From NCBI RefSeq assembly GCF_029626035.1, contig NZ_JARUBE010000003.1:2418001-2482000 (forward strand): a stretch of 64,000 nt of DNA, given 5' to 3'. A program made the position numbers and the translations under genes. The notes beneath the pieces were generated by a model, which was not told the DNA's origin, ran no database searches, and worked only from the letters and a program-made list of their open reading frames with translations. Below are positions 49,374 through 52,300 of the stretch, one piece after another. Source of the DNA: Micromonospora sp. WMMD980. GTDB taxonomy: Bacteria; Actinomycetota; Actinomycetes; Mycobacteriales; Micromonosporaceae. The first letter of the stretch is position 1. Every line of letters starts with the position of its first letter.

Positions 49374-52300
49374 TCAGACCGGAACGGCCTCCCGGGTGTC
49401 CGCCTTCTTGGCGGCCAGGCGCTTCTCCCGCTCCTGGGCGCCGATCAGGTCGTCCGGCAGGGAGTCCTCGACCTCCAGGTCGAAGCGGCGCAGCAGCCGG
49501 ATCGCGAAACCGCCCAGGGTGATCAGGATCAGGACCACCCCGAAGCAGACGTACGCGAAGCCGATGCCGCGGCCCGGACCGGTGCCGATCACCTCGCCCA
49601 CCGAGCCGGCCAGCGACCCGCCCGGGGCGAGCATCGGCTCGAACACGGCGGTGGCGCCCGGCGCGAGCAGCGCGAACCCGATCGGCAGCGTGGACCAGGC
49701 AATGGTCTGGTTCAGGCTGAACACCCGGCCGTGGAAACGCTGCGGCACCTTCACCTGGACGATCGTCGCGTAGATCGACTGCGCGGTGGTCATCGCCATG
49801 GCCAGCCAGCAGAAGCCGACGCAGATCATCACGATCGACGCGTCCAGCCCGATCAGCACGCAGCCGATCGCGGTGCCCAGGTTGCCGATCAGCACGCCGA
49901 TCATCCGCCGCTTGCGCGGGCCGCCCCACAGCGACATCAGCACGCCGCCGAGCACCGCGCCCACCGCCTCGGCCAGCGCCACCTGGGCCACCTGGGTCGG
50001 GCTGCCGAACGACAGCACCAGCGGGGTGGTGAGCACCAGCGCCGGCGCCAGGAAGATGTTGCCCAGCGCGAAGTAGCCGAGCATCAGCCGGAAGCCGCGG
50101 TGCCGCCAGGAATAGCGCATGCCGTTCGCGATGGCCACCAGCATCCGCTCCCGGGGCCGCCAGCCGAGCAGGTCCGGGAAGCGCACCACGGCCAGGGTCA
50201 GGATCGCGACGACGTAGCTGGCCACGTCGACGATCAGGATGCCCTTCAGCTCGATCGCGGCCAGCAGGCCGGCGGCGAACGCCGGCATCAGCAGCGTCGC
50301 CACGCCGGTGGATAGCTGGGTGATGCCCATCGCGTGCCCGAGGTAGCGCTTCGGCACCAGCTGTGGCACCGCCGACTGGAACGCGATCCGCTGGAACGAC
50401 CCGGCCACCGAACTGAACGCCACCAACAGGTAGATGTGCCAGAGCACCAGGTTGTCGGTCCACAGCAGGGCGGCCAGCACCAGCTGGATCGACCCGGCGA
50501 CCGAACTCGCCAACATCATGATCCGCCGACGGCTGACCCGGTCCACCAGGGCGCCGGCCACCGGCAGCATGAGCACGCCGCAGATCAGCGCCAGCGCCCA
50601 CAGCAGGCCGAGATCGGCCACCGAGCCGGTGCGGTTGAACAGCCAGATCGGCAACGCGAACGCGGTCAGCGCCGAACCGGTGCTGGAGACGAGCTGCCCG
50701 ACCGTGACCGCCAGGAACCGGCCCATGCTCGGCTTGACCGTGGTGTCCGGCTTGCGCTCCTCGCCGACCCGCAGCATGTCGTGCACCGCCCAGCCGGCGT
50801 CCTCGCCCCGGGCCTCCGGGTCGAGCCCGGTCAGGTCGCCGGCCACCACCGCCGGGTGCGTCCGGGTGACGATCTCCGCCAACTCCTCGGCGCGGTACTT
50901 CAGGAAGAAGTGCCCGGCCTGGTCGAGCACGACCAGCCCCAGCGTGTCGCTGAGGAACTGCCACTCGGCGTACCGCTCGCGGTAGTAGTCGGTGACCGGG
51001 TCCTCGGAGCCGACCACCGAGACGATCGGGGCGCGCAGCTTCGTGGCCCGCCGGTCGAGCAGGCCGGTGAAGTACTCCTCCGAGGCGCGCGAGTCGGCGC
51101 GCATGTTGCTGATGATCCGGTCGGCCTGCTCCGGGTCCAGCTCGTCGGTGTCCACACCCATCGACTTGAGCCAGCTCGCGTAGTGCTTGTTGCTGCGCAG
51201 CTGCTCCAGCCGGTTGCGGGCCGCCGCGAAGGGGCCCTTCGGGCGGGCGAACGGGAACATCGCGCCGATGTAGACGGCGGTCAGGTCCCGACCGGCCGCC
51301 TCCACCTTGCGGGCCACCTCGGCGACGATCGCGCTGCCCACGCCGCAGTGGCCGTAGAGCGCGATCGGGCCCTCCACCCGCTCCACGATCTCGTCCGCGA
51401 CCCGGGTGGTCAACTCGTCGAACGGCAGCGCGTCCTCGCTGAGCCCCACGTCGTGACCGGGGATGGCGAGCGACCACAGGCCGTACCCGGCCGGCAGCGC
51501 GTCCGCGAGCGGCTGGTAGACGATCGCGCTGCCACCGCCGTACGGGACGCAGACGTAGGTCAGCACCCGCTTGCCGACCGGGATCGGCTTGGTCAGCTCG
51601 TAGAGCAGCCGGCGTGGCCCCTCCTGCGCGGCGTCACCGGAGATGAACGCGGCCAGCTCGCGGATGGTGCGCTGCTGGAAGAGGTCCATCACGCCGACCG
51701 CCCGGCCGCCCAGCTCCGCCTTGCGGATCTTCGCGACCACCTGGGTGGCGAGCATCGAGTGCCCGCCCAGGTCGAAGAAGTCGTCGTCGATGCCGAGCGT
51801 CGCCACGCCGAGCACCTCGGACCAGATCGCCGCGAGCGCCCGCTCGGTGTCGTCGCGCGGCTCGACCAGCGCCACCGACGCCTCGCGGGTGACCACCGGG
51901 GCAGGCAGCGCCTTGCGGTCGAGCTTGCCGTTGGGCGTCAGCGGCAACGCGTCGAGCGTGACGAACGCGGCCGGCACCATGTACTCCGGCAGCGTGTCCT
52001 TCAGCGCCGCCTTCAGCGCGGCGTGCTCGGCCGGCCCGACCAGGTAGGCGGTGAGCCGCTTGTCGCCGGGGCTGTCCTCGCGCACGATCACCGTGGCCTC
52101 GGTGACCTCCGGCTGCTCGCGCAGCGCGCTCTCGATCTCGCCCAGCTCGATCCGCAGGCCGCGCAGCTTCACCTGGTGGTCGATCCGGCCGAGGAACTCG
52201 ATCACCCCGGCGCCGTCCGGACCGACCACCCAGCGGGCCAGGTCACCGGTGCGGTAGAGGCGCGCCCCCGGCTCGGCCGAGAACGGGTCGGGGACGAACT

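What the first reader, a model, noticed from the sequence alone, without database searches (positions are those of the whole stretch)
51300..51900. Thioesterase with a cysteine nucleophile (GHCGVG) behind a Ser module
The codon for the nucleophile is TGC at 51345-51347. Cys thioesterases are established for beta-lactone release in obafluorin and beta-lactam formation in sulfazecin. With a predicted terminal Ser, attack of its hydroxyl could give a beta-lactone; simple hydrolysis or macrocyclisation remain possible.
Basis: partly seen in the sequence, partly recalled or inferred. Interest (0 to 1): 0.75.

Follow-up and report, generated by a model that had tools for sequence, protein, structure and literature searches.

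The report
Cysteine release domain fused to exporter
A Micromonospora peptide-making enzyme ends in a cysteine-based release domain joined to a membrane exporter; it resembles enzymes that close reactive four-membered rings, so it may make a serine beta-lactone, but its relatives show that the cysteine alone does not prove this.

The parts
49374..54863 (-). NRPS gene g9, C-A-T-TE-MFS, 1829 aa
   Evidence: ORF and domains
53436..54746 (-). condensation domain (residues 40-476)
   Evidence: PF00668
51924..53375 (-). adenylation domain (residues 497-980), code DVWHISLID, read as Ser
   Evidence: Ser also in PMC8698034 (passages)
51642..51839 (-). carrier (T) domain (residues 1009-1074)
   Evidence: PF00550
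50829..51611 (-). thioesterase domain (residues 1085-1345)
   Evidence: PF00975; ObiF1 match; model
51345..51347 (-). codon of the nucleophile Cys1173 in GHCGVG
   Evidence: aligns with ObiF1 Cys1146
51261..51263 (-). Ala1201, position I (ObiF1 Gly1173; Asp in EntF-type TEs)
51000..51002 (-). Asp1288, position II (ObiF1 Asp1254)
50910..50912 (-). His1318 (ObiF1 His1284)
49659..50717 (-). fused MFS exporter domain (about residues 1383-1735, 10 hydrophobic segments)
   Evidence: PF07690 and PF05977; hydropathy; TIGR00900 match below its cut-off
54863..57979 (-). NRPS g8, C-A-T, code DLTKVGEVG, read as Asn
57976..58164 (-). MbtH-like protein g7
   Evidence: PF03621
58166..59119 (-). TauD-type dioxygenase g6, possible beta-hydroxylase (inferred)
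   Evidence: PF02668
59152..64000 (-). PKS g5, KS-AT-KR-DH-ACP; runs on to 64608 beyond the window

Best explanation
The TE takes the finished acyl-(hydroxy)Asn-Ser chain from its carrier domain onto Cys1173 by transthioesterification, with His1318/Asp1288 generating the thiolate. The Ser side-chain hydroxyl then attacks the thioester and releases an N-acyl-serine beta-lactone, which the fused MFS domain exports. Shown here: positions of Cys, Asp and His, an ObiF/SulM-like predicted fold, a Ser-type module by code, and the covalent MFS fusion. Inferred: the acyl-enzyme, ring closure by the Ser hydroxyl, hydroxylation of Asn by TauD, and hand-over to the exporter.
Against: Ten of 151 distinct family loci, all Cys, end in a module read as Gly; one of them, L129, matches ObiF1 and SulM just as well (32.8 and 30.5). 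An exclusive clade with ObiF1, L108 and L109 is rejected (p-AU 0.0003; group named after the first tree was seen). The elbow insertion is not in ObiF1. Eight loci of our subclade have an Asp-like last module and L182 an Asn-like one. No product is known.
Confidence: 0.45

Rival explanations
1. Macrocyclase: the acyl-Cys intermediate is attacked by an upstream nucleophile, such as the beta-hydroxyl of hydroxy-Asn, a polyketide hydroxyl or an amine, giving a macrolactone or macrolactam.
For: BulbE Cys TE makes a macrolactam and its Cys-to-Ser variant mainly hydrolyses (PMC11536411, passages). Family members after Gly-type modules must do something other than beta-lactone closure. TauD and KR could supply hydroxyls.
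Confidence: 0.22
2. Hydrolase: the TE simply releases the linear acid, and the Cys is a lineage trait.
For: The same position-II triad occurs in type II hydrolytic TEs such as RifR (PMC6668435). Some relatives with the same kind of module (DIWQ) use Ser or Cys interchangeably (7 Ser, 3 Cys).
Against: Cys kept in 120 of 120 near relatives; Ser in place of Cys favours hydrolysis in ObiF1 and BulbE; placement with RifR and L093 rejected.
Confidence: 0.2
3. Intermolecular transfer or oligomerisation: the acyl chain is passed to the hydroxyl or amine of another molecule, as in EntF trimerisation or FrsA side-chain transfer.
For: EntF is also C-A(Ser)-T-TE (PMC6668435, passage). FrsA TE makes intermolecular esters (PMC7794379, passages). 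LanB-N (PEARL-like) genes in the cluster could act on a free carboxylate (role inferred).
Against: EntF-type TEs carry the Asp at position I; this TE does not.
Confidence: 0.08

Closest known systems
ObiF/ObiF1 TE (obafluorin, beta-lactone; 6n8e)
   Same: Cys nucleophile after His, Asp at position II, small residue at position I, closest by sequence and by predicted fold
   Different: No MFS fusion (A and MLP domains follow instead, PMC6668435); no extra residue in the elbow; exclusive clade rejected
SulM TE (sulfazecin, beta-lactam; 8w2c)
   Different: SulM has Gln-Cys-Asn at the nucleophile and a diaminopropionate module (PMC11298585, passages); ours has His-Cys-Gly and a Ser module
BulbE TE (bulbiferamide, macrolactam)
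   Same: Cys nucleophile in an NRPS terminal TE
   Different: Asp at position I (PMC11536411, passages)
Type II TEs RifR and BorB
   Same: Position-II triad; next in the fold list
   Different: Stand-alone, Ser nucleophile; separate clade, 100/100
Orphan cluster pks/nrps-3 of Micromonospora okii and strain TP-A0316 (PMC8698034)
   Same: Same module series ending in Asn and Ser modules with a TE (passages)
   Different: MFS is absent from the paper's main text (word search); in the passages seen the Cys and LanB-N genes are not mentioned
Threopeptin (sna) cluster of Stackebrandtia (PMC11212132)
   Same: LanB-N genes inside an NRPS-PKS cluster; that paper mentions such enzymes fused to thioesterases
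   Different: The C domain of our A-T-C-T protein reads VHHAVFDG, not the ureido signature EHHxxHDG

Membership tests
ObiF-type beta-lactone-forming TE | Cys nucleophile with His before it | tested here: met
   His1172-Cys1173 = ObiF1 His1145-Cys1146
ObiF-type beta-lactone-forming TE | Asp at position II, small residue at position I, His | tested here: met
   Asp1288, Ala1201 (Gly1173 in ObiF1), His1318
ObiF-type beta-lactone-forming TE | G-x-C-x-G elbow | tested here: not met
   GHCGVG has one residue more than GHCAG
ObiF-type beta-lactone-forming TE | Terminal residue with a beta-hydroxyl | tested here: met
   By code only: DVWHISLID, Ser
ObiF-type beta-lactone-forming TE | Exclusive common clade with ObiF | tested here: not met
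   p-AU 0.000321
ObiF-type beta-lactone-forming TE | Beta-lactone product | not testable with these tools
   needs enzyme assay
SulM-type beta-lactam TE | Gln-Cys-Asn at the nucleophile | tested here: not met
   His-Cys-Gly; criterion from PMC11298585 passages
SulM-type beta-lactam TE | Diaminopropionate terminal module | tested here: not met
   Ser code
Type II proofreading TE | Groups with type II TEs | tested here: not met
   placement with RifR and L093 rejected, p-AU 1.1e-91; but type II TEs plus our subclade as one side of a branch not rejected, p 0.36
Type II proofreading TE | Stand-alone protein, Ser nucleophile | tested here: not met
Canonical type I NRPS TE (EntF, Vlm2) | Asp at position I | tested here: not met
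   Ala1201
BulbE-type Cys TE | Cys with Asp at position I | tested here: not met
   criterion from PMC11536411 passages
TE-MFS family with Cys and position-II Asp (defined here) | MFS domain directly after the TE; one clade | tested here: met
   35 MFS-fused rows one clade, 100/99; MFS match in 128 of 151 distinct loci

The most novel reading that the evidence does not exclude
A release-and-export machine: a Cys TE with a remodelled elbow closes the terminal Ser of a PKS-NRPS chain into a beta-lactone and hands this labile electrophile to an exporter on the same polypeptide. It would be one branch of a large TE-MFS family in which one scaffold makes different small-ring or macrocyclic releases depending on the last residue.
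Probability: 0.35. Interest if true: 0.85.

Novelty: new variant of a known kind. Interest (0 to 1): 0.6.

Why it matters
The SulM structure paper (PMC11298585, passages) says that among structurally characterised NRPS TEs only ObiF1 and SulM move the Asp to position II, and links this to four-membered ring closure. Here the same arrangement, nearly always with Cys, is found in a large and mostly MFS-fused family seen in Actinomycetota, Chloroflexota (metagenome-assembled), Bacillota and Myxococcota. It includes modules read as Gly, where a beta-lactone is impossible. What Cys and position-II Asp select for becomes directly testable, and an orphan cluster common in Micromonospora becomes a candidate source of serine beta-lactones.

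Tried and rejected
Fold similarity as proof of beta-lactone chemistry: rejected by my own control, since the Gly-type TE L129 scores as well against ObiF1 and SulM. Arg1223 as equivalent of ObiF1 Arg1190: Arg in 39 of 80 first-set loci, but ObiF homologs L108-L110 come out as not Arg in the second alignment, so that loop is badly aligned and the residue is not used. My first mapping of ObiF1 numbers was 20 off; the corrected one is. I first took Gly1200 as position I; the strict equivalent of ObiF1 Gly1173 is Ala1201. A ureido product as in sna: the C domain of g4 lacks EHHxxHDG (sequence). I did not test PEARL-specific residues. Type II TEs plus our subclade on one side of a branch is not rejected (p 0.36), so the branching order at the base is open. 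SulM sits on a very long branch in the quick tree (3.31) and was left out of the careful tree. SrfA-C TE and EntF are not among the VIA rows shown, which says nothing about them.

Print: TE-MFS fusions, (7 papers, none on the point by listing; no paper). Cys TEs and ObiF-like mining: 8 listed, none on the point; only the SulM paper; 253 papers, 15 listed, only SulM and ObiF1 bear on it; 52 papers, 15 listed, SulM, ObiF1 and BulbE bear on it. Micromonospora and beta-lactone: (66 papers, 15 listed; no such product in the listing). The library holds open-licence papers only.

What I saw of papers: PMC6668435 passages and section 9; PMC11298585 passages; PMC11536411 passages; PMC11212132 abstract, introduction, first part of results, discussion; PMC8698034 passages; PMC7794379 passages. 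Meanings of A-domain codes are recalled, except that PMC8698034 also gives Asn and Ser for this cluster type; DMPQ, DIWQ, DMYN and DMYH codes I cannot assign.

Full report
Observation. It lies in a 1829-aa gene (54863-49374) with the order C-A-T-TE-MFS. The window is G000:C3:2418001-2482000. The nearest protein with a name is from Micromonospora robiginosa (99% in the TE).

Surroundings. Nine genes run in one direction and overlap by a few bases or are separated by at most 36 (coordinates, start codons my choice): A-T-KS; type II TE fused to LanB-N; a second LanB-N; A-T-C-T; PKS KS-AT-KR-DH-ACP; TauD; MbtH; C-A-T with an Asn-like code; C-A(Ser)-T-TE-MFS (domains). The first four lie right of the window. 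Of five close relatives examined, three show all nine in order (in one of them, G232, the A-T-C-T stretch is split over two open frames); in the other two the LanB-N, type II TE, TauD and MbtH genes were not detected at E 1e-6. A Micromonospora paper lists the same series of modules as orphan cluster pks/nrps-3 with Asn and Ser at the end (PMC8698034, passages).

How common. In 298 genomes drawn from the order, 65 have a TE match at E 1e-15 or better; of the 44 genomes of the genus in that draw, 21 (own included) have one at 85% identity or more. In 396 genomes of the phylum, 5 match. Both searches score only a few candidates per genome. That counts TEs; the whole cluster was looked at only in the relatives. 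Of the 120 listed proteins (of 1218 matches), 120 have GHCGVG, YIGAMFP, VGSEDPVT and AGHFF; a Ser-type code was read in full in 118, and in two one position was not captured by the pattern.

Active site. By alignment to ObiF1: His1145 = His1172, Cys1146 = Cys1173, Gly1173 = Ala1201, Asp1254 = Asp1288, His1284 = His1318. So the triad is Cys, Asp at position II and His, with no Asp at position I, as described for ObiF1 and SulM (PMC6668435, PMC11298585). In the predicted structure (mean pLDDT 91.5) the Cys directly follows a strand and begins a helix, as in a normal nucleophile elbow, although one residue is inserted after it. The insertion is in 43 of 151 distinct loci, all MFS-fused.

Family. 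I examined 80 loci found by the TE sequence (matches in frames without the look of a long NRPS were not fetched) and 80 from a named-genome scan (the best 80 of 240). Nine loci are in both, leaving 151 distinct. The second scan used a pattern holding the Cys, so its 80 of 80 Cys is biased; the first set gives Cys 73, Ser 7. All 160 rows have Asp at position II and His, and none has Asp at position I. An MFS match follows the TE in 128 of 151. Last-module codes among the 151: Asp/Asn-like 48, Ser 39, Orn-like 16, DMPQ 14, Gly 10, DIWQ 10, obafluorin-like 3, Thr 2, other 3, none read 6. All seven Ser-nucleophile TEs follow DIWQ modules, as do three Cys ones. In four of the 39 Ser rows the A domain found is about 700 residues before the TE, so it may not belong to the last module.

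Tree. In a careful tree of 54 rows the 35 MFS-fused TEs form one clade (100/99), our subclade of 14 lies in it (100/99), and type II TEs stand apart (100/100). Placing our subclade with RifR and L093 is rejected (p-AU 1.1e-91), and so is an exclusive clade with ObiF1, L108 and L109 (p-AU 0.0003; groups named after a first tree). Holding type II TEs and our subclade together on one side is not rejected (p 0.36), so the deep branching order is open.

Local chemistry. In our subclade the last module is mostly Ser (once Thr) while what precedes it changes: Asn modules, DTEDIGT-type modules, a C-T without its own A, or directly a PKS. A macrocyclase would more likely need a fixed partner. Against this, eight loci of the subclade have an Asp-like last module and L182 an Asn-like one.

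Weights. I put 0.45 on serine beta-lactone release, 0.22 on macrocyclisation, 0.20 on hydrolysis, 0.08 on intermolecular transfer, and the rest on something else. Shown: sequence, residue positions, predicted fold class, fusion, conservation. Inferred: all chemistry.

Verdict. The more unexpected result is the family: Cys/position-II TEs that form one MFS-fused clade, are seen in several phyla and have different last residues. Three direct searches found nothing in print on such fusions, in an open-licence library only.

Noticed in passing
L010:142-5591 (68142-73591 in window count, right of the window): Two LanB N-terminal-domain (PF04738) genes inside the NRPS-PKS cluster, one fused to a type II TE; PEARL-like by comparison with the sna paper, but without the ureido signature in the cluster's A-T-C-T condensation domain.
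   Followed up: partly
L010:5588-9055: A-T-KS protein with no AT after its KS, starting the cluster; how this KS is fed is unexplained.
   Followed up: no
L066 (G000:C3:3280737-3291016): A second Cys TE-MFS NRPS in the same genome, in a 4483-aa open frame, with last-module code DMPQVGLVW that I cannot assign.
   Followed up: partly
L079-L091: In a sister group without MFS, TEs after the same DIWQ-type module use Ser (7 loci) or Cys (3 loci): a natural Ser/Cys swap set.
   Followed up: partly
L163, L174, L117, L120, L157: The TE-MFS fusion also occurs in Paenibacillus, two Chloroflexota metagenome-assembled genomes and Corallococcus, which suggests horizontal transfer (contamination of the assembled genomes not excluded).
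   Followed up: partly
L204, L206 (G295, G216): Relatives with C-A(Asp-like)-T-TE-MFS where the only other NRPS-like gene found in the 20 kb upstream is a divergent C-domain protein: a minimal system for assay.
   Followed up: partly
window 46464-47684 (+): A weak serpin match (PF00079, 30 bits against a cut-off of 27, E 4.2e-07) near the end of the cluster; protease inhibitors of this kind are not common in bacteria (recalled).
   Followed up: no
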